DNA from: a virus
Length of the DNA: 45,075 nucleotides
Direction: 5' to 3' (one strand)
IMG/VR virus record: IMGVR_UViG_3300017971_000099
Location: 1 to 45,075 of that record
Below the pieces are notes generated by a model. The model was not told the origin of the DNA. It did not search any database and was given only the letters and a program-made list of their open reading frames with translations. The stretch's first letter is position 1. Each line of letters begins with the position of its first letter. This document shows positions 1,883-44,275 of the stretch, one piece after another. Position numbers and translations under genes: made by a program.

Positions 1883-1917
1883 GTCTGTATCACTCCCTTC
1901 TGTGCCTGGGTGGCTCG

Positions 1918-1985
1918 GTGCTCCTTGTCTCAATGGCCGTCGTGGTGACGGTCACTCAGGCAGGGAGCACGGGCTCGCCTGCCTG
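1918..1985 (-). promoter_or_regulatory. Intercistronic RNA element with two competing folds
   Basis: The 106-nt gap between the stop at 1989 and the ATG at 1882 can fold in two exclusive ways. Fold A pairs GTGCTCC (1918-1924) with GGAGCAC (1964-1970) around an 8-bp hairpin TGGCCGTC/GACGGTCA (1934-1941/1947-1954, one G-U pair). Fold B pairs CAGGCAGG-GAGC (1957-1968) with GCTC-G-CCTGCCTG (1973-1985), a 12-bp hairpin with one bulge and an ACGG loop. Both use 1964-1968. This is attenuator- or switch-like geometry, but there is no U-run, so it is not a simple terminator. It may tune expression of the VWA gene relative to the upstream genes. Confidence 0.4.
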
Positions 1986-1988
1986 CTG

Positions 1989-2891
1989 CTAGTTCCCGTT
2001 GTCGATGTAGGCTTCCATCTTCTTCAAGATGGCTTCGGCTTCTCTGGCCGTTCGCTTGCGCGCCTGGGGGCTCTTTCTCAGGGTGTCGGGTGCGTATGCG
2101 GTCAACTTGCTTCCGACTTCCTCAGTCAGGGCCGTTAGCTCGGGGTCGTCCATCACGTTCAAAGCCGGGAGGACTTGCAGAAGCTCTTTGATGTTCTCGA
2201 CCAGCGAGTCTCTGAAGATGCCGTTTCTCATGACTCCTTTCTTTTCGTCGTATGTCTGCTCGTGCATTTTCCACGTCATGGCGGCGACGACTTCATACAG
2301 GCGTTTCCAGATGTCTTTCATGGCTGCTGCCTGTGCGTCCTGCAGGCGATTGCTGACTTCCTGTTTGACTGCTCTTAGGTCTGTCTCTGGAAGTTCGAGG
2401 CGGAAGTCTTCACTGTCGGGCAAGGGCGATACCTTCGTTTCGAATTGGAAACGATTTCTGACTTGCTCGGTTGTTGGATAGTCCGTCTCCTTATAGAGTG
2501 AGTTCAAGCTCAATTTCGCCTGCTCTTTCAGGATTTCATAGTTGCGAATAAAGCGCTGGACTGCCTGCTCCCATTTCGCCTGCTGCTTCCTCACTCTCTC
2601 GCTGTACTGTGTAAAGTTCGGGCTCGGGAGCATTCTATACCCATCATCAGACCATGGAAGGGTCAACATATAGTGATACTTCCGTGACTCGTTCTCGATG
2701 CTAGACAGATATCTGATTTCTCTGTCGTCAATGAGTCTCTTAATCGCGTCAACTGCCGTGGGATCGGTTCCGTGCCTGTCTGCAATCTCCTTTGCAAGCT
2801 CCTTGTCTCGCTTCCTGGGGTTCCAGCCAGTGATACGGAGTCGCACAAGCATTACCCTTTGTGACAGTTGGCTGTGTGTTGTTGCGTTCAT
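1989..2891 (-). CDS. Middle protein of the MoxR/VWA cluster (possibly DUF3150-like)
   Basis: The 300-residue protein is largely helical and charged, with no catalytic motif, signal peptide or membrane segment. The start is the ATG at 2891, preceded by AAGGAAGG; the ATG at 2918 has no such site. The gene lies between those for the MoxR-type ATPase and the VWA protein. Three-gene cassettes of an AAA ATPase, a helical protein such as DUF3150, and a VWA protein occur on plasmids and integrative elements. I assign this one to that slot by position and general character, not by recognised residues. It could be an adaptor between the ATPase and the VWA protein or a substrate-binding subunit. Confidence 0.6.
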   Translation of the reverse strand: MNATTHSQLSQRVMLVRLRITGWNPRKRDKELAKEIADRHGTDPTAVDAIKRLIDDREIRYLSSIENESRKYHYMLTLPWSDDGYRMLPSPNFTQYSERVRKQQAKWEQAVQRFIRNYEILKEQAKLSLNSLYKETDYPTTEQVRNRFQFETKVSPLPDSEDFRLELPETDLRAVKQEVSNRLQDAQAAAMKDIWKRLYEVVAAMTWKMHEQTYDEKKGVMRNGIFRDSLVENIKELLQVLPALNVMDDPELTALTEEVGSKLTAYAPDTLRKSPQARKRTAREAEAILKKMEAYIDNGN

Positions 2892-2914
2892 TGGCTCTGC
2901 CTTCCTTCCTGTTC

Positions 2915-3925
2915 TCAAATGAGAACGTCTTGATGCTTCGATGTCCAGTCGATATACTCACGGGTGCTGCACAGTTCCGGGGTGCGTTCGGTGGCATCAC
3001 GGACTAACACAAGGTTGAATTCTTCGGGTAGTCTCTCCGCATATTTGAGGATGCGACCGAAGTTCGTTGCGGTTGCCTTCCGGGCAAGGGCGCCGGCAAT
3101 GGCGTAAAGGGGCGCCGGGCCGGTCGGGATGATGGCCGTCTCGGGATTCATTATCACGTGGTCAATATCGGGGAGTTGGTTTAACAGTGCCAAAAACCCA
3201 AGATATCGATTGGCTGCTTCCGGGCCGACTATGCCGCCGATTAGCTCGGGCTGTAGGTGCTTCGGTGGGTCGGTGTCCATCAATCGGCTGACAAACTCCC
3301 ATGTTCTGAGCGTCGGGAATGCTTTGTCATTCTTGCTCGGGTTGAAACGATACAGATAGTCAGGGACGGCACGGTGAAAAGCAATCACGTCGGTTCTGAT
3401 GCCGTTATTGAGTGCCCATGTCACCCAGTCGGCAAGGTCAATCTCAACTTCGATGTGAACAAAGCGGTTCGCAAGGGCTGACGGCATGCGGTGTACAACT
3501 GCCCGGTCAATCTCTCGGTTGCCTGCGGCAACAATAAACTGACCGGCTGGCTTCACGAATGAACCGATACGGCCGCCGAATATCAGCTGGTAAAAGACTG
3601 CCTGCACCATTGGTGGTGCTGACACAAGCTCGTCCAGTAGCCAAATACCGTATGGGGCCGTTGGGTAGTTGGCCGGGATCGCGCGCACGGTCTTGTATTG
3701 CCCGTTTTCCTTCACGGGTACGGGCAAACCTTCAGCGTCAACGGGGTCCATCAAAACGGGCCGCATGTCTGTGAAGGTGTACTCTTGGCCGGTGCGGTCG
3801 GTCATAACGTCTGCCAGTTGGTAGCAGATGCTCGACTTCGCACAGCCAGGGGGGCCGGTCAACATGACAGGCTGATCGGCTTCCGCGCAAAGTGTGAGGG
3901 TTTCAAGCACGTCGGACGGCTTCAT
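2915..3925 (-). CDS. MoxR-type AAA+ ATPase
   Basis: The 336-residue protein has Walker A GPPGCAKSS (24-32), Walker B GIWLLDE (93-99), a sensor-1 Asn in IVAAGN (about 136) and an arginine finger in ALANRF (about 154). This is the order of the MoxR/AAA_5 family. Such ATPases form rings and act as chaperones with VWA partners, which fits the gene at 590-1882. The start codon overlaps the stop of the upstream gene as TAATG, so translation is probably coupled; AAGGAG lies 11 nt before the ATG. MoxR proteins have been linked to metal-cofactor loading and stress functions; which applies here cannot be told. Confidence 0.9.
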   Translation of the reverse strand: MKPSDVLETLTLCAEADQPVMLTGPPGCAKSSICYQLADVMTDRTGQEYTFTDMRPVLMDPVDAEGLPVPVKENGQYKTVRAIPANYPTAPYGIWLLDELVSAPPMVQAVFYQLIFGGRIGSFVKPAGQFIVAAGNREIDRAVVHRMPSALANRFVHIEVEIDLADWVTWALNNGIRTDVIAFHRAVPDYLYRFNPSKNDKAFPTLRTWEFVSRLMDTDPPKHLQPELIGGIVGPEAANRYLGFLALLNQLPDIDHVIMNPETAIIPTGPAPLYAIAGALARKATATNFGRILKYAERLPEEFNLVLVRDATERTPELCSTREYIDWTSKHQDVLI

Positions 3926-9729: not shown

Positions 9730-10199
9730 TTCGCTTCGGGGACATACTCGCGTCCGTCAACCGCGAGATTGATATGTACCAACTGCGGAATCAGGTTCGC
9801 AGCGGCCTGAACCTTCCGGGCGTTCCAGGTGAAGGCAAATGGCGGAGTCCTAAGCTGATGATAATTCATGAGAGGCCGGGCGGTGGCTATATGCAGGGAA
9901 TCTTCCGCAAGAGGGCCGCTGCCGTTTACAGGGAAATACTCGAGCGCGAGAAGATCGGGCTAAGTGAAATCTATGTGACGGCCTGCGTGAAGACAAGGCC
10001 GGGAACCAAAAGGCCGTCGCTGCGATATGAAATGAATTTGTGGGGGCCGGTACTCGACAGAGAGATCGGGCTTGTCAAGCCACAGGCGGTTGTGCTGCTC
10101 GGGCATCTCGCGCGGCGCATGGCGAAGCATTCGAAGGAACTGAACAAGTATGGGTCTACGGGTATATCCACCGCGAAGGAAGAAGCCGGGCGAATTTAG
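9726..10199 (+). CDS. Uracil-DNA glycosylase superfamily-like protein
   Basis: The 157-residue protein follows the outline of family 4/5 uracil-DNA glycosylases: GVPGEGKW near 30-40, LMIIHERPGGG where the family has the GExPG water-activating loop, YVTACVKTRPGTKRP like the NxVKCRPPxNR segment, and VVLLGHLARRM near the end. The usual Cys ligands of the iron-sulfur cluster and the C-terminal H-P-S/A loop are not seen, so it may be inactive or divergent. It may act as a DNA-binding remnant rather than an active repair enzyme. Its 3' end overlaps the start of the giant virion gene by 50 nt. Confidence 0.55.
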   Translation: MIRFGDILASVNREIDMYQLRNQVRSGLNLPGVPGEGKWRSPKLMIIHERPGGGYMQGIFRKRAAAVYREILEREKIGLSEIYVTACVKTRPGTKRPSLRYEMNLWGPVLDREIGLVKPQAVVLLGHLARRMAKHSKELNKYGSTGISTAKEEAGRI

Positions 10200-13100
10200 C
10201 TTTGACCTTGCTCCGGAGCGCGCGGAGACGGAAGAAATCGTCGAGGCTGAAGGCGGCGGCAACGTCTTTTTAGATGCTCGCGCCGGTGGCGATATACGAG
10301 CATTTGATCTTGAGACATATCTTCCACGCTTGGGCCAGCAAGAGACGACACCGGCTGCAACTGAAACGAAAGAGGCATCTGCTGAAACGAAAGGGGTGTC
10401 CGCTGAAACGGTCGCATATGAAGAGAAATACGGGGCGCTCCCCGATTTCGCGGATCTCAATGAATACACGGAATGGAAAGAATCGCAGCGTCCACCCGAT
10501 GCGCCTGCCCGCGATGTCTATGTATGGCCGGGGCCGTCCGGCTGGAAAGGGCCGCGTTCGAAACGCGCTCAAGAATATCACGAGCGAGTCGAGAGGGCCG
10601 GAGAGCCGTCGTATCAGCCGACAGGCAAGCTCTACAGTTGGTATGACGAGGCGGGTACGCTTCAGGTCACAGGCAACGCCGAAGAGATTCCCGAGAATGT
10701 GGATGTTCGCGTGTTTCAGGGGCCGACGAGACGCGGGGTCGCTCAACCCGCCGCTGCACCTGTTGAAGAGCCGCCGACTGGCTTGCCTACCGTACCCGTG
10801 AGAGAACGTGTAGCAGCGATTACACCTGGGCCAAGTGGCGAGAAGATGTTGGCGCAAGTGGAAAAAGAGGTTCCGGTGATTGATGCTGTGACATCACCTG
10901 CCCGCGCCGTCACGCCGGAAGATCAGAAACGGCGCGAGGCTGTCCGTAAGAACGAAGAGAAAGCCGTGAGCGATTGGCGCATAGCAGCTGCCGGCATGGG
11001 CGGCACACGCATGATTGCGGATATGCCGGGCAGACCTAAAGCGAAGAGCGCGGTGCTCGGGACAACGATTCAGCCGGCGCGCACACCCGACCTTGAAACA
11101 ACGCTCAGCCAGCTACCACGTACCAGCTTTGTCGAGACGATGCAAGATGCATACGCCCGGCGAGAAGCGAAAGAGCCGGGGTTTTGGAGCAACCTCGCGG
11201 CCAAAGCCGATATGTTCGCTGATGTGTACTCGATGGGGGGCACCCAACAGATCGAGTTGGATTATGCGCGCAAGCTCGTGATGGCCGATCCAGAAGTGCA
11301 GGCACTCGCTCAGAAACAAGGGGCTGATCTTCAGGCGCTCGTCTTTCCAGATCAGCAAGACTTTGACCTTTGGTATGCCTGGCTCACGAATAAACATCGT
11401 GGGGGGATGCCGTTCACACGGCGTACCCGATACGGTGCGCTGCAGGAGTTTTGGCGCGAACAGGCGAAGTCACAGCCGGAGCTTGTGAATCTGATCGCTC
11501 AAAAGACGCTCGGCGCCATAAACAGCGGCGTTGCAATGGAGCACTTTCAAGAACAGGGGATTCTGAAGGGAGTATATGAGGGGCTTATAACTGATCCCCT
11601 GTTTGTGGGGTCGCTGATTATCGGCGGTGTGACCAGTGGAATGAAGCTCGGTGCCACCGGCCTTGCCGCTACTGGAAGAGTCGGAGCCGCCGCGAAAGTC
11701 GCACGGGCCGCGAAAGCCGTTGAGACGGCGCGGATCACCGTTGAGCCTGTCGAGATGGCCGTAGGCGCAACGGCAAAGGGCGTGGCTAAAGGAGTCAGCG
11801 CTGTCGCAAAGCCAGCTGCACGAAGAGCAGCTGCAAAGGTTCTGCCTGAAGCCGAGTACGGAATTAGGCGCGCTTTGTGGACGTGGGCCGGAGAGAAGCC
11901 GGAGAGCGTAGCGCGGCGCGGGATCGCGCGCGCTTTTAGCATCTTGGATGATGCGGATACGGTCTATGCACACAAAAACAGAGTAGTGCAGAGCATCCGG
12001 GAAGGTCTGCGTAAAGCCGGCGTTCCAGACGAAGAACTCGTTCGTGAGGGTCAGCGGATCGAGCGCGGTGCTACGCTCGTACAGAAGATGCAGAAGAAGA
12101 AGCCTTACCTGTACCGCAAGGGGCTACGCGATGCCGAAGAACTGCTGAAGCGCGTTAAGGGCAAGACGCTGGTTGACCCGAAGACAAAGCAACTAACACC
12201 GCTTGGCCGCGTCGTTCATTATCTCGATACCGGCAAAGGACTGGACAAACTCAGCGACACCGAAAAAGAGGTCGCTCAAACGATACGCGGCATTCTTGAT
12301 GAACTGAAAGAGAAGCTGCCGGAAGATGTGGGCAAAGTCGAGCATTACTTTCCTCGGTTCGAGCCTGTGCCACGCAAACGTAGGCCCGTGCAGGAAGCGA
12401 AGAAGGCGCTCGGCAAGGAAGCAAAGAAGTTTTGGGAGGAAGTCCGCGAGGCGAACCGGCCAGCGATTCGCATATACAAGACACGCGACGATGCACTGAG
12501 CGGGCTTGGGCGCCGTCTGGCCGGCCAGGACGTGACGGAACTGAATGAGCAAATTAACACGACACTCATCAAGCTGGCTGAGAGCTTCGGCGCAGCCGAA
12601 AAGAAAATAAAGAAGCCTGCCGGCTTCAAGGTTTCAGCGCAAGTCGAAATAAGCGGCAAGCCACACACCATCGAGGAAGCTCAGAAGATCGCGCGCATTC
12701 AGCGTGCCCGTGGCACTGACGCGAGCATCGCCGCCGCCGAACGTATAGAGGCTCGGGTTGCTGAAGCAGAAGCGAAGGCCGGCAAAATCATCTCGGCACA
12801 GCAAAAAGCGTTAGCGAAACGGAAAGTGAAGGAGCTACCCGCCGAAGTCCAGCAAGTTCAAAAAGAGCTTGCCGCCGCCGAAGAGCAAGTGCGCGGGCTA
12901 GAGGTTCCTGTCCGTCGTGCTGAGAAGATGAAGGTCCGTATGGAGGCGCTGAGAGAAGAAGCAAAAGAGCTTCGACAAGGCTTCATGGATCTTGCCGGCT
13001 CGACGGAAAAAGAAGAGAGGATGCGACAGTTCCGAGGTGTCCAGCAAAAAATCGAGAAGACACAGGCGGAGCTAAAGGCATTGGAGCCACAGCCCGACGA

Positions 13101-16100
13101 AGTGAAACGGCTTGCGCGCACACTCTACCGTGACGCCAAGAAACGCCAACGACAAGAGGGCGGCACGCTATTGCAGGCTGTGAGGCGCGAATTCACAACG
13201 GGCGGAATCAAAATAAAAAAGCCGACAAGGCCCGGCGCAGAACTGGACGCATGGAAACGGTTGGCGCCTGCGTGGAAATCTACCCGGCAAGGACTCAGGC
13301 TCGACGATCTGATAGAAACCGTGCTGGAGCAAAACCCGCAGTTGCGGAGCAAGTACGGGAAGATCCCCGATCCTATGCACGTCGTCGAAGACCTGAAAGC
13401 TGAAGCGCGAGGCGGAGCGAAAATTCGTGTTGTCGACTTCGAAGAGGAAGCATATCAGAAGCTCTTGTTCGAGAGCCAGGGATACGAAGAAGAGCTTGCG
13501 CGGAAACTATACGATTACGAGCTTGAGCGTGAGCGCTTGGTGTACGAGGCAATGCAAAACCAGGTGGACGACACGCTTGAAGAGGCCGAACGCACGAGAT
13601 GGGGCGATGCGATACAGGCCAAAATCGAGAAGCTCGACCAGGAGTTTTGCGAGTTGGAAGAAGCGCTCGGCCCCGAAGACGCGCTGAAGCAGATGGCACG
13701 GCGCTTGGATCGGAGCTATCGGAATCGCACCAAACTGGAGCGACACCTGAAGGCGAAGCGCGAGAAGCTGGATCGCTATCGTGACTTTACAAAGGCCAAG
13801 CCGGTTTATAAAGAAGAGCCGATTGACCTCAGTAAAGATTTCGTGGACTTTGTAAGGAACTATCCGGTGGAACAGACCGAACTGGATATTCTGGAGAAAT
13901 GGCACCAGAAATTTCTTTTAAGGCCGTTCAAGACAACGATGCTCGGCTATCGGCCATCGTATGCGTTGCGGAATATCAGCACGGCCTCGCTACGAACAAT
14001 GAATGAGATGCTGAATGGAATCCTTGAGGGCAAGCCCTGGGCGCCGTCATGGAGCAAGGCCGCGCGCGATTTCATGCACATGGACAAAGAGTTTCTTTTC
14101 GAGTCGATGTACGCGCGACATATACCTGTGACGACACGCAAGACGATGGGGCGCATACCGCATTTTGTGTACGGCTTGGAGGGCTCGGCTGACAGGTACT
14201 TCAAGACCGGCGCCACTATCGGCAAAGTGCGCGCGCATGTGACCGACCTTGCGCGCCTGAACGAAGTAGCGACACATGGCCGGCCGCTGAGCGAAATCGT
14301 GGGAGAGCTTCGGAACAAGGGAATCATTACGGATTTTGCCGATTTGGTGCATAAGTACGGGCGCCAGGAAGCAAACCGGATATTCTTCAACTTTCAGGAA
14401 CGGATTGGCTTGATGATCGGAGCGCCAGGGCAAATGTTCCCGTTTGCGGAGTGGGGTTATAAGAACTGGAATTACGTCGTCAAGGATCTGGTCAAGCATC
14501 CGTGGAAGCTTCGGGCGTGGAAAGTTGCCTATGACCAATGGGCGCATCAATACCAGGATCATCCCGACTATCAGCGGCACGTCGTCAGACTCACGAGGGA
14601 CGGGCCGCTTCGGTATTTCAATAACTTCTTCTCTCAACCGCTGTGGAATGTCGGCGGCTATCAACCGCTGATGCCGTTCTTGGAGGGAACAAGCGAGTAC
14701 GATCAGCTGAGGATTGAGACCTTCGAACCCGAGCTTCAGGCGATTCTCAGGCGCGCACAGCAAGAGGGGCTTACCTGGGATGAACGCGAGAAGCTGATCG
14801 ACAGGGCAGATACACGGATGGGCTTTAAAGGTGCAGGCAGCTTCCGGCACTATTTGGAGGACAGCTACATTGCAGGCGCACAGACCGGCTATCGTTATTC
14901 GAAACATGCCTTAAAAGAACTCGTGGATTACATGGGGCAGAACCTCAGCCTTGGGCCGACAGCACAACTGGCTGTGGCATCCATCGGGCTTGCGAAGTTT
15001 CCCGAGTATCGTAACTATTTCGGCTGGCAGAATGTCCTTGAAGATATGGGCTTGATAGTAGACAAGCGGTTCCTTGACTTCTTCATTCCAGAGGGGAAGG
15101 AGCGCTATTACGAGCGCAAGATACATCAGGAAATGGAGAAACAGGAGCTTCGAGGCGAGATACCGAATCGTAAACGCGCTGAGCGAGCGGTTGGAATTGA
15201 GAGGGCGATTGCTCATATCGTGAACAACTTCCTTCCCTTGAGTGGCCGCTTTATAACGCCGGAGGACGTGGAGCGTATCAGCATGATCGAGACGCGCAGA
15301 CGCGCGATGGCCGGGCTCTCCCCTACTCCTGAAACCTCGATGATCGACGTGATGAAGAATCAGCTTGAGACGGGCCGCGACTACTCGATAGCGAAGTTTC
15401 ATGTCGAGGCTGAACGCGCACAGAACAAGGGCGATTACGCGCGCGTTGTCGAGAGGCGGAGCCCTGGCGGGGCGGTCGTGGCTCTTGGGCCTGCACGTCT
15501 GAGCACACGTAGCGAAGAGATAGAGGCGCTGAAGCTGGCTGCTGCGCTGGCCGTATTGGAAGCGGTTCCAGAGGCAGAACAAAAGAAGTATGCACAGGCA
15601 TACGATGTCGATGGTCTTGTGCTTGCAGATTCCGGCGCCATCGCCAGAAAGAACGTGGCAGCTGGCTACTACGAAAAGACCGCCGCGTTTCTGTTGGCTG
15701 ATGCGAAAGACCGCAACAAGATGGTCAAAGACGATCAGGACTTGCAGATGTTCGAGTTGGGCGTAAAGGAAGTCGGCGGCGTGCGCGCTCGGCCACACTA
15801 CGCCAAGCAATGGATCCAACGGCTGGCCGATGATTCTATAGCGATGGGAGATCCCCGCGTGTTCCGGGACAAGCTGGCTGAGCATCCCGAAATGATAGAG
15901 CTCGTGCGCGACCTTCCAGACGGGCAGACGTTCATCAACACGATCCAGGCGAAAGTGTTGAAAGGCGCACAGACCGCGCCTGCGAATGTGGCAGCCGACA
16001 TCAAGCGGATCAATGAGCTTCGCTATCAGGGGCAGACGGAACAACTGACCTCGTACCTCGATAAGCTGAGCAATGAGCGCGTTGGCGCCATCAAGGATCA

Positions 16101-16887
16101 TATCGGTGAGGGCGAGTATAAGCGCATGGTGGACGAAGCAAAAGACATCGGCGCGTTTAACGAGGCAAGCGAATTGCTGCAGGGCGTCATGCAGGCCGAC
16201 GACTATGTGAGAGCGTGGGAGGATCTGAACACAAAGGACAAGGGAAAGATCGAGTCGCATTTTCCAGAGTGGGACATTCCCGAACGAATGAAAGCCGAAA
16301 AGAAACGGCGTGAAGAGCACGCCGAAAATGAAGAGTGGAAGCAGCGCATAGCCGAATCGAATTATGACGTTCGACTGCGGAAGACGGTGCCGGCAGAAGT
16401 CAAGAGGCGCCTTGCAAATGAAAATCAATTTTGGTTCGACTTCTTTTATCCGTCTGCTCAGATGCTCGCCCAGGCTGAGCTACGGAAAGAGAAGTTGAAG
16501 GAACAAAAGAAACGGGAGAAAGAACAGGCTGAACGAAAAGAGTTCTTGGCGGAGGTGAAGAAATGGGAAGAGCAGATTCTAGCGTCGGATTTCGATAGCT
16601 CATTTAAGGGCAGTCGCGTACCAATCGACGTGCGGCGCCACCTTGCCGATAAGGACAAACGCTTCGAGCAGTTCTTCTTCGGGAAGGCAACGGGCACAGG
16701 CGGCAAAATTGCCGGTGGACGTCGGAAGAAAGGGCGAGGCTCCGCGCATGCAGGCTTCGGTGTAACCTCGGGGCGTCTGCGCGGCAAGGGACAACGGGAA
16801 CGGAAACAGCTGGCATTCACGGCCAGAGGGCAAGGGAAAAGCAGCGTGTTTGCCCAAGCCGCTGAAGCTGCCGGGAAAAAACAGTAG
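10150..16887 (+). CDS. Giant virion protein (2245 aa), probable internal/ejection protein
   Basis: This gene takes up about 15 percent of the genome. The start at 10150 is supported by AAGGA upstream and by overlap with the previous gene. The first 300 residues are Pro/Glu-rich and probably disordered. A Gly/Ala hydrophobic stretch near 480-520 (DPLFVGSLIIGG) could insert in a membrane. Charged coiled coils occupy about 840-1250. A globular region around 1270-1600 contains RPSYALRNIS and FFSQPLWNVGGYQPL. The C terminus has a duplicated motif: AESNYDV...PAEVKRRLA (about 2065) and LASDFDS...PIDVRRHLA (about 2142), each followed by an FF. Lacking a tape measure, the phage probably uses it as an internal core protein that leads DNA into the cell. 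Enzymatic domains cannot be excluded. Confidence 0.65.
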   Translation: MGLRVYPPRRKKPGEFSFDLAPERAETEEIVEAEGGGNVFLDARAGGDIRAFDLETYLPRLGQQETTPAATETKEASAETKGVSAETVAYEEKYGALPDFADLNEYTEWKESQRPPDAPARDVYVWPGPSGWKGPRSKRAQEYHERVERAGEPSYQPTGKLYSWYDEAGTLQVTGNAEEIPENVDVRVFQGPTRRGVAQPAAAPVEEPPTGLPTVPVRERVAAITPGPSGEKMLAQVEKEVPVIDAVTSPARAVTPEDQKRREAVRKNEEKAVSDWRIAAAGMGGTRMIADMPGRPKAKSAVLGTTIQPARTPDLETTLSQLPRTSFVETMQDAYARREAKEPGFWSNLAAKADMFADVYSMGGTQQIELDYARKLVMADPEVQALAQKQGADLQALVFPDQQDFDLWYAWLTNKHRGGMPFTRRTRYGALQEFWREQAKSQPELVNLIAQKTLGAINSGVAMEHFQEQGILKGVYEGLITDPLFVGSLIIGGVTSGMKLGATGLAATGRVGAAAKVARAAKAVETARITVEPVEMAVGATAKGVAKGVSAVAKPAARRAAAKVLPEAEYGIRRALWTWAGEKPESVARRGIARAFSILDDADTVYAHKNRVVQSIREGLRKAGVPDEELVREGQRIERGATLVQKMQKKKPYLYRKGLRDAEELLKRVKGKTLVDPKTKQLTPLGRVVHYLDTGKGLDKLSDTEKEVAQTIRGILDELKEKLPEDVGKVEHYFPRFEPVPRKRRPVQEAKKALGKEAKKFWEEVREANRPAIRIYKTRDDALSGLGRRLAGQDVTELNEQINTTLIKLAESFGAAEKKIKKPAGFKVSAQVEISGKPHTIEEAQKIARIQRARGTDASIAAAERIEARVAEAEAKAGKIISAQQKALAKRKVKELPAEVQQVQKELAAAEEQVRGLEVPVRRAEKMKVRMEALREEAKELRQGFMDLAGSTEKEERMRQFRGVQQKIEKTQAELKALEPQPDEVKRLARTLYRDAKKRQRQEGGTLLQAVRREFTTGGIKIKKPTRPGAELDAWKRLAPAWKSTRQGLRLDDLIETVLEQNPQLRSKYGKIPDPMHVVEDLKAEARGGAKIRVVDFEEEAYQKLLFESQGYEEELARKLYDYELERERLVYEAMQNQVDDTLEEAERTRWGDAIQAKIEKLDQEFCELEEALGPEDALKQMARRLDRSYRNRTKLERHLKAKREKLDRYRDFTKAKPVYKEEPIDLSKDFVDFVRNYPVEQTELDILEKWHQKFLLRPFKTTMLGYRPSYALRNISTASLRTMNEMLNGILEGKPWAPSWSKAARDFMHMDKEFLFESMYARHIPVTTRKTMGRIPHFVYGLEGSADRYFKTGATIGKVRAHVTDLARLNEVATHGRPLSEIVGELRNKGIITDFADLVHKYGRQEANRIFFNFQERIGLMIGAPGQMFPFAEWGYKNWNYVVKDLVKHPWKLRAWKVAYDQWAHQYQDHPDYQRHVVRLTRDGPLRYFNNFFSQPLWNVGGYQPLMPFLEGTSEYDQLRIETFEPELQAILRRAQQEGLTWDEREKLIDRADTRMGFKGAGSFRHYLEDSYIAGAQTGYRYSKHALKELVDYMGQNLSLGPTAQLAVASIGLAKFPEYRNYFGWQNVLEDMGLIVDKRFLDFFIPEGKERYYERKIHQEMEKQELRGEIPNRKRAERAVGIERAIAHIVNNFLPLSGRFITPEDVERISMIETRRRAMAGLSPTPETSMIDVMKNQLETGRDYSIAKFHVEAERAQNKGDYARVVERRSPGGAVVALGPARLSTRSEEIEALKLAAALAVLEAVPEAEQKKYAQAYDVDGLVLADSGAIARKNVAAGYYEKTAAFLLADAKDRNKMVKDDQDLQMFELGVKEVGGVRARPHYAKQWIQRLADDSIAMGDPRVFRDKLAEHPEMIELVRDLPDGQTFINTIQAKVLKGAQTAPANVAADIKRINELRYQGQTEQLTSYLDKLSNERVGAIKDHIGEGEYKRMVDEAKDIGAFNEASELLQGVMQADDYVRAWEDLNTKDKGKIESHFPEWDIPERMKAEKKRREEHAENEEWKQRIAESNYDVRLRKTVPAEVKRRLANENQFWFDFFYPSAQMLAQAELRKEKLKEQKKREKEQAERKEFLAEVKKWEEQILASDFDSSFKGSRVPIDVRRHLADKDKRFEQFFFGKATGTGGKIAGGRRKKGRGSAHAGFGVTSGRLRGKGQRERKQLAFTARGQGKSSVFAQAAEAAGKKQ

Positions 16888-29750: not shown

Positions 29751-30749
29751 ATGGCCGTAAAGATACAGAACGGCGGAAGTGAGCCGATCTACACGGCGGC
29801 GCTGATGGATGCAAGCCGAACGCTCCTGACCGGCTTGTCGAATGTATACGTGCGTGTGCGCCGTGAGAGCGACGGCTACTATCTCGACTTCGGTGATATG
29901 ACGTTCAAGGCTTCGCCGGGAAGCATCCAGACGGCCATGTCCGAGGTCAGCGCTGCGAACATGCCGGGCGTATACCTCTACGATTTTGACTTGTCGAACG
30001 TCACGAATGAGACGCAGAACGACGTGTACCTGTTCGTCGTCAACTGCGCGTCGGCCATCAACGCACCACAGCAGGGTGAGCTAATCACTGATGATCTGGA
30101 AGCGCGCTCCGGGTGGGGCACGTACACATTCACAGCGACCGTGCAGGACTCCGCCGACTCTTCCCCGATACCGGCCGCGACGGTGCAGATTCGCAACGCT
30201 GCCGGCACGATCGTTGTAGGCCAGAATACCACGAACGTCAACGGCCAATGCACGTTCCTGCTCGATACCGGCACGTACTCGGTCTATGTGTATGCGACGG
30301 GCTACACGTTTTCGAATCCGTATGTGCTCGGGATCTCGGGCAACGGATCGGCCACGTATCAGGGTACGGCGTTCAGCGTCGGGGCCCCAGGCTCGGCTGA
30401 TGTGTGTCGCGTCTATGGGTTTGTCAAAGATATAGAGGGCGCCGCGATTCAGGGGGTGCGGGTGAGAGCCGAACTCAACTCGCGCTCGGCGTACATCACT
30501 GCTGCAAGCTCGGGAACCTTAATAACGAACACGACCGCGCATGCCGTGACGAACGCGGACGGCTACTGGTATATCGACTTGATCCCGAATGCAGACTTGG
30601 AAGTTGAGCCGACTGGTACGATAGGCCAGCCTTCAGGCAGCACAGACACGAGCTATACGTTCCATTTCGACGGAGCCAACTACAAGCGGAAATACTCGCC
30701 GGTGATCGTGCCGGACGAAACGACGGCGGACTTTAAGACGTTGGTTTAA
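29751..30749 (+). CDS. Virion-associated protein with two carboxypeptidase-regulatory-like domains
   Basis: The start is the ATG after GGAGG at 7 nt. The first 115 residues (AVKIQNGGSEPIYTAALMDASR) resemble a phage baseplate or fibre attachment domain. Two Ig-like carboxypeptidase-regulatory-like beta-sandwiches follow: TFTATVQDSADSSPIPAATV...TGTYSVYVYATGYTF (about 120-210) and YGFVKDIEGAAIQGVRVRA...ADGYWYIDLIPN (about 225-320). Such domains bind polysaccharides on virion surfaces. It is the last rightward gene and its stop overlaps that of the convergent Tnp20-like gene, with no terminator between them. Confidence 0.65.
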   Translation: MAVKIQNGGSEPIYTAALMDASRTLLTGLSNVYVRVRRESDGYYLDFGDMTFKASPGSIQTAMSEVSAANMPGVYLYDFDLSNVTNETQNDVYLFVVNCASAINAPQQGELITDDLEARSGWGTYTFTATVQDSADSSPIPAATVQIRNAAGTIVVGQNTTNVNGQCTFLLDTGTYSVYVYATGYTFSNPYVLGISGNGSATYQGTAFSVGAPGSADVCRVYGFVKDIEGAAIQGVRVRAELNSRSAYITAASSGTLITNTTAHAVTNADGYWYIDLIPNADLEVEPTGTIGQPSGSTDTSYTFHFDGANYKRKYSPVIVPDETTADFKTLV

Positions 30750-31594
30750 ACCGTAACCGGCTCTTTTTCGTGGCCGAGGTATTCTTGCTGATATGAGGGT
30801 CTGACCGGCAAGTTCTCACGCACTCTCCATTCCAGGTAGAGGTCTTTCAAGAACATCTTTATCATGTATCGCTTCGCTGCCATGTCTCTATGACCCTTCG
30901 ATACATCCTTCCACGCCTTGCCGTCGCCTTTGACTGCATTCCGTTCGTGCTCAAGGCGTTCCTTGTAAGGATAATAGAAGTTGAGCGCATATGGCGACTG
31001 CGCCTTCAGGAAGCCGCTGGCCAAGACACCGACAAGAGCGGTTCGCAGGCGCTTGTTGTAGGGAAGCACGAATTCTGGCGTGGCCTTGTCTGCGCGTACC
31101 ATGTCGTCTGTCTGCACGATATACGCTTCCGGCTGATCTTCCTTATTCATAAGCGTCCTGACTATCTGCCCCATGTCTTTCGTATAGTCCTCGATTTTGA
31201 CCCGCTTCTTACCGCGCACTTCGCCTGGATTGAGTCCGGCGTATTGCCACATCTTAGATACAGTTACGGCCTTCTTGATGTCGAACTCGGCCAACAGCCA
31301 GCCGGCAGCTATCGGGCCGACGCCCTTGACCGTTGAGAGCCACTCATTGTAAACCGGGAAACGCTTCAGGACACTTGCAAGCTTGCCCGCAATTATGGCC
31401 TCCATCTGGCGCGCCTCATCGGAGATGGAGGCAAGAATGAGAACGTCGTCGACGCGCAGAAAACGGCGGCGCACGTCTTGTGCAGAGCCATCGGCCTTCC
31501 GTCCAAGTCGGTTGTCGATAGCCTTACGCAACGCCTGAAAATCTTCCCTCACTCGTGTGAGAAACTTCAGCATTTCCTGATCTTGTGATTTCAT
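30746..31594 (-). CDS. IS110 C-terminal-domain (Transposase_20) protein without the DEDD domain
   Basis: The 282-residue protein starts 8 nt after AAAGGAG, which directly follows the repeat array. Residues 1-85 are helical and coiled-coil-like. Residues about 88-145 match the Transposase_20 domain of IS110/IS116/IS902 transposases, with helix-hairpin-helix KGVGPIAAGWLLAEFD and SKMWQYAGLNPG. The later YNKRLRTALVGVLASGF and MAAKRYMIKMFLKDLY helices also follow the family. The N-terminal RuvC-like DEDD nuclease domain is missing. Where active members have the catalytic Ser-Gly after the GLxP motif, I read Arg-Gly (EVRGKK), so the recombinase serine is probably absent. A nearby gene supplies a separate RuvC-like nuclease. 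It is the last gene of the leftward early operon. Confidence 0.75.
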   Translation of the reverse strand: MKSQDQEMLKFLTRVREDFQALRKAIDNRLGRKADGSAQDVRRRFLRVDDVLILASISDEARQMEAIIAGKLASVLKRFPVYNEWLSTVKGVGPIAAGWLLAEFDIKKAVTVSKMWQYAGLNPGEVRGKKRVKIEDYTKDMGQIVRTLMNKEDQPEAYIVQTDDMVRADKATPEFVLPYNKRLRTALVGVLASGFLKAQSPYALNFYYPYKERLEHERNAVKGDGKAWKDVSKGHRDMAAKRYMIKMFLKDLYLEWRVRENLPVRPSYQQEYLGHEKEPVTV

Positions 31595-31613
31595 AGTAAA
31601 CGCTCCTTTAGGA

Positions 31614-31929
31614 TGGTTGACTTAACTACCCTGGCACGCTCCTTTTTTATGGTTGACTTAACCAGCATGGCACGCTTGTCTTTTTTGGGTTTCTTACAAA
31701 GCTTGGCGCGCTTTAACCTTGTGGGTTTCTTTAGCTTCTTGGCTCGCTTTCACCCCCTGGGTTCCTTCTTGATGGTGGCTCGCTTCTATACTGTGGGTTT
31801 CTTGAACACGATGGCGCGCTTACCTTATTTGGTTTGCTTGAGACCGATGGCTCGCTTCAGCTTGTTGGTTTTCTTCAATACTGTGGCTCGCTTGCTCAAG
31901 AAGGGTTTCTTTTTTACCATGGCTATTTC
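31614..31929 (-). repeat. 18-nt-period array: alternating 10-nt blocks with 8-nt variable spacers
   Basis: Eighteen units start at 31614, 31632 and every 18 nt to 31920, without a single insertion or deletion. On the minus strand two block types alternate strictly: A, AAGCGnGCCA, and B, AAGAAACCCA (B varies slightly, for example AAGTCAACCA at 31614 and 31650). Each is followed by 8 unrelated bases, such as TCTTGAGC, ACAAGCTG, TCGTGTTC, AGCTTTGT or TGCTGGTT. Two spacers are near-identical (CAGTATTG, CAGTATAG). A degraded A block at 31596-31605 reaches the ribosome binding site of the Tnp20-like gene; the other end meets the stop of the HExxH gene. The minus frame giving KRAxxxKKPxxx is broken by TAA, TAG and TGA. 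The plus strand is open but has no ribosome binding site. Confidence 0.9.
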
Positions 31930-32309
31930 TTCAAAATCCTTTCCATCAGGAATTCTATCAGGTAGGCATACGTTTCAGATGATTCGAGAGTCAGAGGCAC
32001 CTTGTTTTCGAGTGCGAAATGGACAGCATGAAAGCATTCGTGTGCAAGCCAGTACACCTTACGTCGTTTGGTCCATATCCAAATAACCTCGCTCCCGTTC
32101 TCGCTTTCAAAGTGCTTACAGGTTCCGCCGATACGTTCATTCGGTGGCAATTTATAACCGAGAGTGCGTTGCACAGCCTCGCGCCAGCGGGAATAGGAGA
32201 TCCCGTAGCTCACCCAATAGTTTGTTCCGAAGATCTCATCATAGATGTGCTGCGGAACGTGCTTTTTGGGTTTCTTGGCTTTAGGCTTCGACTTCTTGGT
32301 CTTTTTCAT
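31923..32309 (-). CDS. HExxH metallopeptidase-like protein (128 aa)
   Basis: The N terminus is Lys/Pro-rich (MKKTKKSKPKAKKPKKHV), a probable DNA- or RNA-binding tail. Residues about 88-97 carry AHECFHAVHF, an HExxH zinc site, followed about 18 residues later by ESSETYAYLIEF, which can supply the third ligand as in gluzincin- or IrrE-like peptidases. The gene overlaps the RuvC-like gene upstream by ATGA, and its stop codon lies at the edge of the array. The codons for KAKKPKK contain AAGAAACCCA, the exact B block of the array, so the array may have grown from such a tail-coding sequence. Its substrate is unknown. Confidence 0.65.
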   Translation of the reverse strand: MKKTKKSKPKAKKPKKHVPQHIYDEIFGTNYWVSYGISYSRWREAVQRTLGYKLPPNERIGGTCKHFESENGSEVIWIWTKRRKVYWLAHECFHAVHFALENKVPLTLESSETYAYLIEFLMERILKK

Positions 32310-32941
32310 TTGACACCGACTATCCTTCCCTTGTCGTCATACACGGCCCGATTGGTGCGTATCGCCTCGGCTATCTGCTCGTCGGTCATGTCACGAAGTT
32401 TCGGTTTCCGCTTGGAGGGCTGCGGCTTCTGAAAATCCAACGGCTGCTGCGTCGGCATCGTGGGCCATGCCGCCCGGAACTCGCGCATCGCACAGCAGCA
32501 GGCTGTGGCAATCGCGTCAACGGCATGGAGATCGTGAATCTTGGGCAAATTGAGGAACCGCATCAACGTTTTTCGGACTTGTTGCTTCTTCGCGGTGCCG
32601 CCACAGATTGCACCACGTACACTGGAAGCGGTGTAGCTGTCGACGTAAATGCCCAATTCTTCACCTATAAGCTCGATGATTCCCTGCACCTGAACCGTGA
32701 TTATCTTTTCCTTTGGTGTTGCCTGATACTTCGAGAAGACATACATCTCGTAGCACATCACATCAATCAGATGCTTTTTGCAATAGACCGTGATCCATTC
32801 GTAGGTGTCTTGAAAATGATGGCCGATAACAGGGATCGTGCCGTAGTTGGCTACTGTGATTTCGCGGGTGTCATGCGACACTTTGATCTCGGCGAAGCCG
32901 GTACTCACGGCGCCGGGATCGAACCCGAGGATGGTGGTCAT
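32306..32941 (-). CDS. RuvC-like Holliday junction nuclease
   Basis: The 211-residue protein shows the RuvC order: GFDPGAVSTGFA with Asp8, MCYEMYVF with Glu65, and DLHAVDAIATA with His139 and Asp142 three residues apart, as in RuvC enzymes that use a His at that site. The Lys-rich stretch KKQQVRKTLMRFL precedes it. After residue 155 comes a basic tail, KPQPSKRKPKLRD. Phage RuvC-like enzymes resolve branched DNA before packaging. I chose ATG 32941 (AGGA 6 nt upstream); a GTG at 32977 would add 12 residues. It is separated from the Tnp20-like gene only by the HExxH gene and the array. Confidence 0.85.
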   Translation of the reverse strand: MTTILGFDPGAVSTGFAEIKVSHDTREITVANYGTIPVIGHHFQDTYEWITVYCKKHLIDVMCYEMYVFSKYQATPKEKIITVQVQGIIELIGEELGIYVDSYTASSVRGAICGGTAKKQQVRKTLMRFLNLPKIHDLHAVDAIATACCCAMREFRAAWPTMPTQQPLDFQKPQPSKRKPKLRDMTDEQIAEAIRTNRAVYDDKGRIVGVK

Positions 32942-32973
32942 GGGGCTTCCTAATGCAACTTCTTCCTTTGATA

Positions 32974-33264
32974 TCACTCACTCACCCTCACTTCCTCGCA
33001 CTCCGCGAGTCCGCCGATGGTGACGGTCACAGGGCCGTCCTGTGTCACTGTATAGACCGAGTACGCCCCGCCGTCGTTCATAGGGATTAGGGTCAGGGGC
33101 TCTCCATTTGCGGAGTACGACAGCGAGGCGTCAAGGTCTAAGATGTGCACGACCTCACCGACTGGCCGTTGGAAGGTGAAAGGCCAATCAGTGTGAGCAA
33201 GCAGTCTTGACATGATTACGGTGATGCCAAGAGCGATGATGGTACTATTCTTCCAGTGATTCAC
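32974..33264 (-). CDS. Membrane-anchored or exported small protein (96 aa)
   Basis: The likely start is the GTG at 33264, which overlaps the end of the upstream small gene. Residues 7-22 are hydrophobic (STIIALGITVIMSRLL), a signal anchor or uncleaved signal. The remaining 70 residues are beta-rich (VVHILDLDASLSYSANG, GPVTVTIGGLAECEEVRVSE), suggesting a small periplasmic beta domain. The stop overlaps the longer possible start of the RuvC-like gene. Function unknown; a role in superinfection exclusion is a guess. Confidence 0.55.
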   Translation of the reverse strand: MNHWKNSTIIALGITVIMSRLLAHTDWPFTFQRPVGEVVHILDLDASLSYSANGEPLTLIPMNDGGAYSVYTVTQDGPVTVTIGGLAECEEVRVSE

Positions 33265-34673: not shown

Positions 34674-34718
34674 CGTGAATCGAGTGATCAAAACGGCGCA
34701 TCCTGATGGGCTTTCACG
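34674..34718 (-). promoter_or_regulatory. Possible intercistronic stem (45 nt)
   Basis: CGTGAA (34674-34679) pairs with TTCACG (34713-34718), enclosing a CATC-ct-GATG palindrome. The stem includes the stop codon of the PolX-like gene and ends just before the ribosome binding site of the small membrane protein gene. A 6-bp stem in a gap of this size can occur by chance, so the evidence is weak and rests on its similarity in placement to the larger elements. Confidence 0.2.
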
Positions 34719-35229
34719 CTTCTCGCTCCCACGGCTCCTTATACGGCATTTTGAGCGCGTCGAAGATGTCAGCCTCAGTCATAACCTTGACCCGCCGCAC
34801 ATCGTGGCAGTCGGCGGGCTCTTCGAGGCCGTCTCCGTTGGCCTTCAGGCACAGATTCATTTCTCTGGCCCGTTTGCAGAGTATGATATTGTGCTCTTTT
34901 GAGCCGGTGCGGATCAACAGCAGCGTGGCCCACGTCTCAGCGGTAGCGACGTACAGATCGACCGGGATGCCTTCCCACCTGAACCGGATTATCTTGTCTC
35001 CGCCCTTTGGCGTAATCCGATGTTCTTGGAAAAAGAGTTGAAAGCCGGGGCCGGGTATCACTACGAGATCAATGTCATGCACGTAAGGCTTGTGCCGGCG
35101 AAGGCTGCCGGCAATCTCGATGCGCTCACAGTGGCGGCTCAGCGCTCGATAGAGGTCTAAGGCGGTAGCGCTGGCTTCCGCAGCCGGATACCGCTTAGGT
35201 TCGTCTTTTGGGAATAGGTCTTCTGTCAT
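34714..35229 (-). CDS. Family X polymerase-like nucleotidyltransferase
   Basis: The 171-residue protein contains the palm of the DNA polymerase beta superfamily: IAGSLRRHKPYVHDIDLVVIP, with the GS motif at 41-42 and Asp52 and Asp54, then the third Asp in VDLYVA (91). RTGSKEHNIILCKRARE and TEADIFDALKMPYKEPWERE match the C-terminal thumb of PolX. The N-terminal 8-kDa and helix-hairpin-helix domains are missing. It may fill gaps, add nucleotides at ends, or modify tRNA or other acceptors. It overlaps the ASCH gene by 4 nt. Confidence 0.8.
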   Translation of the reverse strand: MTEDLFPKDEPKRYPAAEASATALDLYRALSRHCERIEIAGSLRRHKPYVHDIDLVVIPGPGFQLFFQEHRITPKGGDKIIRFRWEGIPVDLYVATAETWATLLLIRTGSKEHNIILCKRAREMNLCLKANGDGLEEPADCHDVRRVKVMTEADIFDALKMPYKEPWEREA

Positions 35230-37539: not shown

Positions 37540-39114
37540 TTAGAACATTTCGCGTTGTGTTGCCTGCGCTGCCAGCTTGTCGAGCACCTGGGCCTGCAGC
37601 ACTGAATCACTGAGTTGTTTCCACGTTTTGTTCTTCTCCCAATCATCTTTGGACAGGCCAAATTTGGGGAGCAGGCCGGTGATGAAAAAGTACACCTTGT
37701 TGCGCGTGGCCTTATCGTTCAAGAGCCGTTCGATTTCGGCGTGGATCCGCTGCGTCTCAGATTCCGAATCAGGCGACGGGGGCACAGGATTTCCGGAGTT
37801 GCTGTTGTCCTGCCAATCGGCCCCGTCACCTTCACCCGCCGCCTGTTCGGTAGGCGCGGGGGCAGAGCCGGTGTCACCCGCGCCTGACTGTTTGTGTTCC
37901 TCTTCCTGTAATCGGTCCCACAGCTTACGCGCCTTTGGCATCGTTAAGAGGTTCGGATCATTTTTGCCGAATCCGATATTTTTGAACTCATCTCCGAGGT
38001 GCAGGGCAAATATCCGGATGAACTTCTTCAGTGCATCGTCGGTTGTGATGTTGGGCCGGAGTCGTCGGGCTGTGGCGAATATGCCGTTCCGCTGCTCGTT
38101 GCTCATGGGTTTTGTCTCGGGCGGCTTGTACGGGCCGGGCTCACCGTTGGCAAACGGGCACTCATCGCCAATGTCGGGCGGTTCCTCGGGTGGCGGCGGC
38201 TCTTCCGGCTCGGACTTCGGGAAATCGACGGACGGCGTGGCTGCCTCGGCGTCGGTGACTACCTCGCCGTCAATGATGTCTCCATTGCCTTCAGGATAGA
38301 ATTCTTCCTGTATGTCGGCCTCGGTTTCGGCCTCGGGGTCAGCCTCAAGCAGCTTGTCAATCTGGCCCCGGAGCGCGAGTGTTTCCCTGTAGCCGACTGC
38401 TCTGCGTTGGCCGATCTCTTTTGCGCGTTCGAGCAAGGAGAATACATCGCCGGGGTAGCCCAACGATACGATATAGATAGTGGTAACGGTATCCGCGACG
38501 GCGATGGTCTTGCCCTGCACCTTGAGCTTGAGCGGGATGCCGGCCAGGATGCCGTTGGTGATCGCCGTTATCTCTTCCATTGCCGCCAGAATGTTGTTCA
38601 GCGAATTCCATGACGTCGTTCGGAACTTGTATACGCCGCCGACCTGAGCCGATTGCGGAAGCATGACCGACAGGATCGCGTGGGGCTTGCACTGAAATTT
38701 CTTTGTCCCGCCGTTCTCTTTTTCTAGGTACTCGCAGGGGCATGCGCGCTCTTCAAACTTGTCCGTTTCTTTGTTGCGGCGTTGGGCCTGTTCGCCGTCA
38801 CCCTGACACCAGAGCTTGCGGCCAGCATAGAGCCCGTAGAAGTTGGGCATGTTCTTGGCCGGCTCATCGTGCAAGAGGATGATGTCAAGCTCGGTCGGGT
38901 GCTCTCCGTAGTGCTGCATGACAGCCGGATCGGCTTTGAAGTTGCCGGAATCGTCACGTTCGAGCGTGGTCACGGTGAACCATCCATGCTTGACGGGGAG
39001 TTGGTACTCACGCCCGCTGCTCTTTGCGGTGCGCTTCTCGCCTTTGCCGCCGATTTTGATCTTGCCGACTTCGGCAAGCCGAATGTTTAAGTCTTTGATC
39101 CGTGTGAATTGCAT
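37540..39114 (-). CDS. Gp3-like / recombination directionality factor-like protein (524 aa)
   Basis: Residues 1-230 resemble the phiC31 Gp3-like family: [16 protein letters not shown] near the start, then [28 protein letters not shown], a CxxxxxxxxRRNK...CPCEYLE...FQC zinc cluster, [10 protein letters not shown] and [14 protein letters not shown]. Some members steer serine integrases toward excision; others are only annotated as metal-binding. Residues 245-340 are acidic and proline-rich linkers. Residues about 345-405 form a helical part ([20 protein letters not shown]), and the end is another helical domain. This phage has a tyrosine integrase, so direct control of it by this protein is uncertain; a role in recombination or as a DNA-binding early protein is as likely. 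Confidence 0.5.
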
Positions 39115-43264: not shown

Positions 43265-44275
43265 ATGAGCATCTATCTGAGGGGCAATGTGTGGTATTCG
43301 GACATCTATGTTAATGGCCGGCGCGTGAGGCGGCGGCTGTCGGATGATGCGGAAGAGGCACGGGCGATGCTGCGGGAAATGAAGCAGCAACGGGATTGGC
43401 AGCGCTGGCATTTAATCACTCCACAGCTGGCTGTGCGGGAGGTTATACAAGTCTATCTGAGGCGCGCAAAGGCCACGTGTCGAGCGTCAACGCTGAATCG
43501 ATACGAGTACCAACTGAATCACTTCGAAGGATTCTGCAAAGCGGTCGGTGTTACGCACGTCTCGGGGCTCACGCTGCAGCTGGCTGATGATTACGTGCTC
43601 TGGCGCAAGGAGCAAGGCGCTGCCCCGAACACGATCAACCAAGAACTGATTATGGTGCGCGCTGCGCTGGCCTATGCCGTGCGGCTCGGCCGCCTGGAAT
43701 CGAATCCATGGGAGCGGATCGAAAAGCTGAAGGTGTCTGACAAATCGCCACGGGTTTTCACTCGGGAAGAGATACGGGCGATTACTGACACGATGCCAAC
43801 ATGGGCTGCGGACGCGGTGACGTTGCTCACGTATACCGGGATGCGTGTCGGTGAGCTACAGCATTTGACATGGCGTGATGTGGATCTGCAGCGTGAGACG
43901 ATCACGATCACATCTCGGGCGGTACAAACGAAAACAGGCCACAGCTGGCTGGTGCCACTGGCCGGGCCTGCGCTCGAGATTTTGCGGCGGCGGTCGGAGG
44001 CACGGGATCGGCGCGCGTGCATCATCTGGACAGAGCGCGGCCCGTTTCACAGAAACTCGCTGCGCGAAATGTTTCAGCGTCGACTACGGGGGCTCGGGCT
44101 TGAGCATGGCACGATACATGATCTCCGGCACACGTTCGCAAGCTGGATGATCGAGGCGGGTGCGTCACTCGATACGGTACAGGCCATTCTAGGGCATCGG
44201 ACGTACAAGACTACCGAGCGCTATAAACACCTCTCCCCTGGGTTTCTCAAGGGAGAAGTGGACAGACTAACTTAA
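43265..44275 (+). CDS. int: Tyrosine integrase
   Basis: The 336-residue protein has an N-terminal beta-hairpin arm-binding domain (about 1-50), a core-binding helical domain (about 55-150) and a catalytic domain with Arg194 (TGMRVGE), Lys223 (TKTGHSW), His285 and Arg288 (HDLRH), His311 (LGH) and the nucleophile Tyr320 (TERYKHLS). All six residues are present, so it should be active. It inserts the genome into the host chromosome. The last arm-type site ends 3 nt before its ATG, so integrase binding could repress its own gene. The 3' end overlaps a leftward gene by 9 nt. Confidence 0.95.
   Translation: MSIYLRGNVWYSDIYVNGRRVRRRLSDDAEEARAMLREMKQQRDWQRWHLITPQLAVREVIQVYLRRAKATCRASTLNRYEYQLNHFEGFCKAVGVTHVSGLTLQLADDYVLWRKEQGAAPNTINQELIMVRAALAYAVRLGRLESNPWERIEKLKVSDKSPRVFTREEIRAITDTMPTWAADAVTLLTYTGMRVGELQHLTWRDVDLQRETITITSRAVQTKTGHSWLVPLAGPALEILRRRSEARDRRACIIWTERGPFHRNSLREMFQRRLRGLGLEHGTIHDLRHTFASWMIEAGASLDTVQAILGHRTYKTTERYKHLSPGFLKGEVDRLT

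What the first reader, a model, noticed from the sequence alone, without database searches (positions are those of the whole stretch)
31614..31929. Regular 18-nt array with two alternating repeat blocks and 8-nt variable spacers
Eighteen units in perfect 18-nt register, with no indel across about 310 bp, each made of a 10-nt block (strictly alternating AAGCGnGCCA and AAGAAACCCA on the minus strand) and an 8-nt sequence that differs from unit to unit. It abuts the ribosome binding site of an IS110-C-terminal-domain protein gene and the stop of an HExxH protein gene. It is neither a CRISPR nor a normal tandem repeat. One reading is a non-coding array of very short guides or protein sites serving the adjacent proteins. 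The rival reading is a decayed Lys/Arg-rich repeat: the only varying base of the A block falls at a wobble position in both the minus (Arg) and plus (Ala) frames, and AAGAAACCCA also encodes part of the HExxH protein's Lys tail.
Basis: partly seen in the sequence, partly recalled or inferred. Interest (0 to 1): 0.9.

Follow-up and report, generated by a model that had tools for sequence, protein, structure and literature searches.

The report
Phage TIGR-Tas guide-RNA array
This is a phage-borne TIGR-Tas system, a recently described CRISPR-like array of very short paired guides next to the RNA-guided DNA-binding protein (TasA) that uses them; relatives show that the guides are inherited and reshuffled as two-spacer cassettes.

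Summary
The array is real, non-coding and identifiable. It is a dual-repeat TIGR array, and the adjacent "IS110 C-terminal-domain" gene encodes its partner, a solo-Nop Tas protein (TasA). The protein passes NCBI's TIGR_Tas model (132 bits, cut-off 100). Its predicted fold matches the solved TasH and TasR tigRNA complexes (E 3e-11 and 8e-8). The same 36-nt edge-spacer-loop-spacer array, on the tas strand, lies beside tas genes in nearly all of about 50 related loci. One is Salicola phage CGphi29, whose TIGR system is experimentally characterised. The window array is nine tigRNA cassettes (edge AAGCGnGCCA, loop AAGAAACCCA, 8-nt spacers), wedged between the stop codon of an HExxH gene and the ribosome-binding site of tasA. 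The decayed-protein reading fails: the relevant frames are broken in the window or in most relatives. The HExxH gene and a nearby RuvC gene are bystanders. I found no targets: spacer pairs do not match their own or related phage DNA above controls. Beyond identification, comparison of related phages shows that the spacerA-loop-spacerB cassette is the unit of inheritance. Cassettes are shuffled, duplicated and replaced, while the two spacers stay linked. Overall: a new member of a known kind.

The parts
31601..31925 (-). TIGR array: 9 tigRNA cassettes, 36-nt unit (edge 10, spacer A 8, loop 10, spacer B 8)
   Evidence: direct reading; 36-nt periodicity against shuffles; same arrays in relatives
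31920..31925 (-). 5'-truncated edge repeat TAGCCA; TAG is also the stop codon of the HExxH gene
   Evidence: sequence
31894..31919 (-). cassette 1: TGGTAAAA / AAGAAACCCT / TCTTGAGC
31858..31883 (-). cassette 2: CAGTATTG / AAGAAAACCA / ACAAGCTG
31822..31847 (-). cassette 3: TCGGTCTC / AAGCAAACCA / AATAAGGT
31786..31811 (-). cassette 4: TCGTGTTC / AAGAAACCCA / CAGTATAG
31750..31775 (-). cassette 5: CCATCAAG / AAGGAACCCA / GGGGGTGA
31714..31739 (-). cassette 6: AGAAGCTA / AAGAAACCCA / CAAGGTTA
31678..31703 (-). cassette 7: AGCTTTGT / AAGAAACCCA / AAAAAGAC
31642..31667 (-). cassette 8: TGCTGGTT / AAGTCAACCA / TAAAAAAG
31606..31631 (-). cassette 9: GGGTAGTT / AAGTCAACCA / TCCTAAAG; probably a diverged tandem duplicate of cassette 8
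   Evidence: 36-bp tandem repeat with 85% matches at 31600-31676; the loop variant AAGTCAACCA occurs only in cassettes 8 and 9
31601..31605 (-). 3'-truncated edge GAGCG, overlapping the AAAGGAG ribosome-binding site of tasA
   Evidence: sequence; the same truncated GAGCG end is seen in L006, L007, L014 and L003
30746..31594 (-). tasA: 282-aa solo-Nop Tas protein without a nuclease domain
   Evidence: NCBIfam NF052498.1 132.4 bits, cut-off 100; PDB TasH and TasR by sequence; AlphaFold2 pLDDT 88, Foldseek to TasH 2.9e-11, TasR 8.5e-8, IS621 2.3e-3

Best explanation
A phage TIGR-TasA locus. The array is transcribed on the minus strand, probably within the leftward operon that also carries the RuvC and HExxH genes and ends with tasA (inferred). 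It should be processed at the edge repeats into about nine 36-nt tigRNAs, each holding spacer A, the loop repeat and spacer B (inferred from the family). A TasA dimer should bind one tigRNA through the similar edge and loop motifs ending in CCA. The two 8-nt spacers would then pair with opposite strands of an adjoining 16-bp DNA site, bending and unwinding it without cutting, since no nuclease domain is present (inferred from the TasR and TasH structures). The likely outcome is RNA-guided blocking or bending of specific DNA, such as repression of competing mobile elements or control of gene expression. The guides are kept as cassettes that are shuffled and duplicated among related phages (shown in relatives; in the window itself one probable duplication is visible).
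For: Protein family: NF052498.1 TIGR_Tas_endo, 132.4 bits over a cut-off of 100. Solved homologues by sequence: TasH 5e-11, TasR 9mty 5e-9. Fold: the ten best PDB matches are all TasH or TasR. Array form: 36-nt edge/loop arrays beside tas genes in all 15 first relatives and in nearly all of about 50 loci, same strand. Salicola phage CGphi29, a published TIGR system with 16-nt total spacer, has edge AGCGAGCCA and loop AGACAACCA, like the window's AGCGAGCCA and AGAAACCCA. Across 100 loci the edge is AGCGAGCCA in 83. Truncated edges at both ends match the published rule (PMC12045711). Cassette linkage: in a phage family with shuffled arrays, spacer pairs across a loop repeat are conserved together 36 times and singly 32, against 6 and 96 across an edge repeat, which makes edge-to-edge the functional unit.
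Against: No transcript, processing or binding data. No target found: spacer pairs in the expected geometry match own or related phage DNA no more often than control geometries. No terminator-like or promoter-like site lies at the array, so co-transcription with neighbours is assumed. Box D of the published TasR arrays is UG; here the matching position reads AG.
Confidence: 0.93

Rival explanations
1. A decayed or live Lys/Arg-rich repeat protein (KKPxxxKRAxxx on the minus strand), or the open frame on the plus strand (31613-32086).
For: 18 nt is a multiple of three, so blocks translate regularly; the plus-strand frame is open through the window array.
Against: The minus frame has three in-frame stops, TAA, TAG and TGA, all in spacers, so no single recoding saves it. 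In 83 relatives' arrays in perfect register, the register of the window's minus frame is open in 3 and that of its plus ORF in 12; 44 arrays have no open frame at all. Spacers turn over while blocks stay.
Confidence: 0.01
2. An array of protein-binding DNA sites (iteron-like or centromere-like) bound as double-stranded DNA.
For: Regular pitch and conserved short blocks; the TIGR paper reports ParB-like genes operonised with some tasA genes (PMC12045711).
Against: Binding sites do not need linked, unit-specific variable spacers kept together through shuffling. The array keeps the strand of tas, and the adjacent protein is in a family shown to bind processed tigRNAs.
Confidence: 0.03
3. TasA acts with the separate RuvC gene (32306-32977) as a split nuclease, a two-gene TasR.
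For: The RuvC gene is on the same strand, one gene away, and matches the Pfam RuvC model.
Against: No homologue of it is found near tas in other loci, and only 1 of 26 related viral records has a recognisable RuvC. It resembles ordinary Holliday-junction resolvases.
Confidence: 0.04
4. A stand-alone IS110 element with its bridge RNA.
For: Pfam Transposase_20 match, barely over its cut-off; IS621 appears in the fold search.
Against: IS110 equivalog 23.5 bits against a cut-off of 140; no DEDD domain; TasH and TasR match far better than IS621 (2.9e-11 and 8.5e-8 against 2.3e-3).
Confidence: 0.01

Closest known systems
TIGR-TasH of Salicola phage CGphi29 (SpTIGR; PMC12045711)
   Same: Edge AGCGAGCCA and loop AGACAACCA with 8-nt spacers; Nop-domain partner; phage-encoded
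   Different: SpTasH carries an N-terminal HNH nuclease, the window protein does not; Tas identity about 28%; its array is downstream of tas, here it is upstream
TIGR-TasA, e.g. Flavonifractor plautii FpTIGR (PMC12045711)
   Same: Solo Nop domain; dual-repeat array; 36-nt unit
   Different: FpTIGR has 18 nt of variable sequence per tigRNA, here 16; not compared by sequence here
TIGR-TasR (PDB 9mty)
   Same: Same Nop fold; tandem-spacer architecture
   Different: TasR has a fused RuvC nuclease and UG...CCA repeats
IS110 RNA-guided recombinases (IS621, bridge RNA)
   Same: Related RNA-binding domain (weak fold match)
   Different: Single bridge RNA, DEDD domain and mobile element; none present here
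CRISPR arrays
   Same: Repeats alternating with variable guides
   Different: Two alternating 10-nt repeats, 8-nt split guides, no Cas genes next to the array

Membership tests
TIGR-Tas | Partner protein with the Tas-type Nop domain | tested here: met
   NF052498.1 over its cut-off; PDB and Foldseek matches to TasH and TasR
TIGR-Tas | Array of two alternating 8-12-nt repeats separated by short spacers (about 9 nt), next to tas | tested here: met
   10-nt repeats, 8-nt spacers, directly upstream of tasA; same in relatives
TIGR-Tas | Truncated edge repeat at each end | tested here: met
   TAGCCA at the 5' end, GAGCG at the 3' end
TIGR-Tas | Predicted rho-independent terminator after the array (typical, not universal) | tested here: not met
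   Six nt between the array and the tasA start codon; no terminator-like site there
TIGR-Tas | Box C (CCA) shared by edge and loop | tested here: met
   Edges end in CCA, and so do all loops except cassette 1's (CCT). In L042 both repeats end in CTA. Box C does not covary everywhere: L022 has CCA and ACA
TIGR-Tas | Box D (UG in TasR arrays) | tested here: inconclusive
   Both repeats carry AG at the matching position; the published rule allows divergence if edge and loop covary
TIGR-Tas | Processing to 36-nt tigRNA bound by Tas | not testable with these tools
   Unit length is 36 nt, and cassette inheritance runs edge to edge
TIGR-Tas | Two spacers pair with opposite DNA strands at one site | not testable with these tools
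   No target found
TasH or TasR subtype | Fused HNH or RuvC nuclease | tested here: not met
   282 aa; N-terminal part is coiled-coil helices in the model; no nuclease family matched
IS110 transposase | DEDD catalytic domain and full-length IS110 model | tested here: not met
   23.5 bits against a cut-off of 140
CRISPR-Cas | Single repeat type of about 25-36 nt with similar-sized spacers, Cas proteins | tested here: not met
   Two 10-nt repeats and 8-nt spacers; the genes scanned by profile near the array matched no Cas family

The most novel reading that the evidence does not exclude
TIGR arrays evolve by recombination of whole tigRNA cassettes (spacer A, loop, spacer B) among related phages: shuffling, internal duplication and in-place copying, rather than by CRISPR-like addition of fresh spacers at one end. 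The nuclease-free TasA then serves as a programmable DNA blocker whose guide set is re-assorted from a shared pool.
Probability: 0.6. Interest if true: 0.65.

Novelty: new member of a known kind. Interest (0 to 1): 0.48.

Why it matters
The locus adds a clear phage TIGR-TasA system to a family whose natural targets, spacer origin and role of nuclease-free members are open (PMC12045711). The relatives gathered here (1,729 parsed cassettes in 120 loci) bear on two of those questions. The guide unit is inherited edge to edge. Arrays differ sharply at about 90% flanking identity but hardly at 99%. Cassettes are duplicated or copied within arrays. The negative result matters too: guides do not point at the phage's own held DNA or at sister TIGR phages.

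Tried and rejected
Targets: all nine window tigRNAs scanned against the window in four geometries, nothing credible. 698 and then 1,566 cassettes against up to 1.26 Mb of related loci with arrays masked: the expected geometry is no more frequent than controls, and no exact self-match was found. Two conserved cassettes searched in all viral contigs: none for TTATAGTAG/GGTCGAGTA; four for AAAGGTAGG/TTGTCATCA (searched as AAAGGTAGG followed by TGATGACAA) at three unrelated places, judged chance. Functional link to RuvC or HExxH: rejected on synteny. CRISPR-like end-polarised spacer gain: L019/L020 share only tasA-proximal cassettes, but in the larger family both ends and the interior are shared or replaced (ends 18 of 96, interior 80 of 756), so no consistent polarity. 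Rfam: no match. Capsid-based search for close relatives of this phage: none found.

Full report
Observation. On the minus strand the region reads as 18 spacers of 8 nt in unbroken 18-nt register, separated by two strictly alternating 10-nt blocks. Four consecutive 36-nt units share 18 identical columns; shuffles of the window reach 6 and shuffles of the region itself reach 7. Proper limits are 31601-31925. The 5' end is a truncated block, TAGCCA, whose TAG is the stop codon of the HExxH gene (31923-32309). The 3' end is a truncated block, GAGCG, inside the ribosome-binding site of the next gene (30746-31594).

Coding reading. The KKPxxxKRAxxx frame contains TAA, TAG and TGA, all within spacers. 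The plus-strand frame is open in the window. In 83 relatives' arrays of at least ten blocks in perfect register, the register of that plus-strand frame is open in 12 and that of the minus frame in 3; 44 arrays have no open frame. The array is not protein-coding.

Identity. The downstream protein barely passes Pfam's IS110 C-terminal domain model. It passes NCBIfam's TIGR-Tas model clearly (132.4 bits, cut-off 100) and fails the IS110 transposase model (23.5 bits, cut-off 140). By sequence its solved relatives are TasH and TasR. An AlphaFold2 model (pLDDT 88, pTM 0.82) matches TasH (2.9e-11) and TasR (8.5e-8) best and IS621 recombinase more weakly (2.3e-3). At 282 aa with helices at its N-terminus and no nuclease match, it is a solo-Nop Tas, that is TasA in the nomenclature of Faure et al. 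2025 (PMC12045711).

Array in relatives. Searches by protein found 15 loci, then 43 viral and 7 genomic loci. All 15 of the first set carry a 36-nt periodic array, and nearly all of the wider set carry edge/loop arrays on the tas strand. Salicola phage CGphi29, whose TIGR-TasH system was characterised experimentally, has edge AGCGAGCCA and loop AGACAACCA. This is the same repeat class as the window, with the same 8-nt spacers. Across 100 loci the edge consensus is AGCGAGCCA in 83. The base before each repeat is fixed in half of the loci (8-nt spacers) and variable in a third (9-nt spacers).

Anatomy. In published terms the window has edge AAGCGnGCCA, loop AAGAAACCCA and nine tigRNA cassettes. 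Cassettes 8 and 9 share the loop variant AAGTCAACCA and form a 36-bp tandem repeat with 85% matches, so the array has probably grown by unit duplication. No promoter-like or terminator-like site lies at the array. It probably rides on the transcript of the leftward genes RuvC, HExxH and tasA (inference).

Mechanism. Shown here: family membership, array architecture and cassette inheritance. Inferred from the published family: processing to 36-nt tigRNAs, binding by a TasA dimer, pairing of the two spacers with opposite strands of one 16-bp site, and sharp DNA bending. Without a nuclease, the expected effect is occlusion or bending of DNA rather than cutting. What it acts on is unknown.

Targets. 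No tigRNA matches the window convincingly. With 1,566 unique cassettes from the loci and 1.26 Mb of unmasked related DNA, the expected geometry (spacer A followed by the reverse complement of spacer B) is no commoner than three control geometries, and there is no exact self-match (earlier set). That geometry is my deduction from the published 3' overhangs and opposite-strand pairing. Two conserved cassettes searched in 2.9 million viral contigs gave nothing coherent. Many loci are partial, so self-targeting elsewhere in those genomes is not excluded.

Array evolution, beyond the window. A pattern scan for the array brought 91 more viral stretches. In one phage family (74-99% identical DNA) cassettes recur in different order. 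Neighbouring spacers across a loop repeat are conserved together in 36 comparisons and singly in 32; across an edge repeat the figures are 6 and 96. The cassette from edge to edge is therefore the unit of inheritance, matching the unit of processing. L094 and L152 (99.2% identical) both have 20 cassettes, yet number 18 (counting from 0) differs, and in L152 it is a copy of cassette 6. Within-array near-copies number 28 in 126 arrays, against a mean of 8.6 when second spacers are permuted. L010 and L038 (about 90% identical flanks) share no spacers, whereas pairs and groups above 99% identity other than L094/L152 have identical parsed cassettes wherever both are held. L019 and L020 keep only tasA-proximal cassettes, but the larger family shows no clear polarity. 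I read this as recombination among cassettes with an unknown source of new ones.

Neighbours. The HExxH and RuvC genes have no homologues near tas in the other loci, and RuvC is recognisable in only 1 of 26 related records. I treat both as ordinary phage genes.

Verdict. The system is known, so this is a new member rather than a new kind. Its main added value is the cassette-level view of how TIGR arrays evolve, and that rests on metagenomic relatives, not on the window alone.

Noticed in passing
L094:590-1300 and L152:6822-7532: Arrays in 99.2%-identical phages differ by one cassette, replaced in place by a copy of another cassette of the same array, with array length unchanged.
   Followed up: yes
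L019:6251-9237: Two tandem copies of array plus tasA in one phage; the two arrays share only their tasA-proximal cassettes.
   Followed up: partly
L042:8831-9217: Both edge and loop repeats end in CTA instead of CCA, a coordinated change of box C.
   Followed up: no
window 590-3925 (-): A MoxR-like AAA gene and a VWA/DUF2201 metallopeptidase-like gene; homologues lie close to the TIGR arrays in L014 as well.
   Followed up: partly
window 37540-39114 (-) and 43265-44275 (+): Gp3-like recombination directionality factor and an integrase: the phage is probably temperate.
   Followed up: no
window 34714-35229 (-): Protein of 171 aa whose C-terminal part matches the DNA polymerase beta thumb domain.
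   Followed up: no
window 10150-16887 (+): 2245-aa open reading frame with no Pfam match.
   Followed up: no
L047:5844-5978: A stretch matching the edge/loop array pattern (8 blocks) seems to lie inside the N-terminal coding part of the tas gene, beside a separate array downstream.
   Followed up: no
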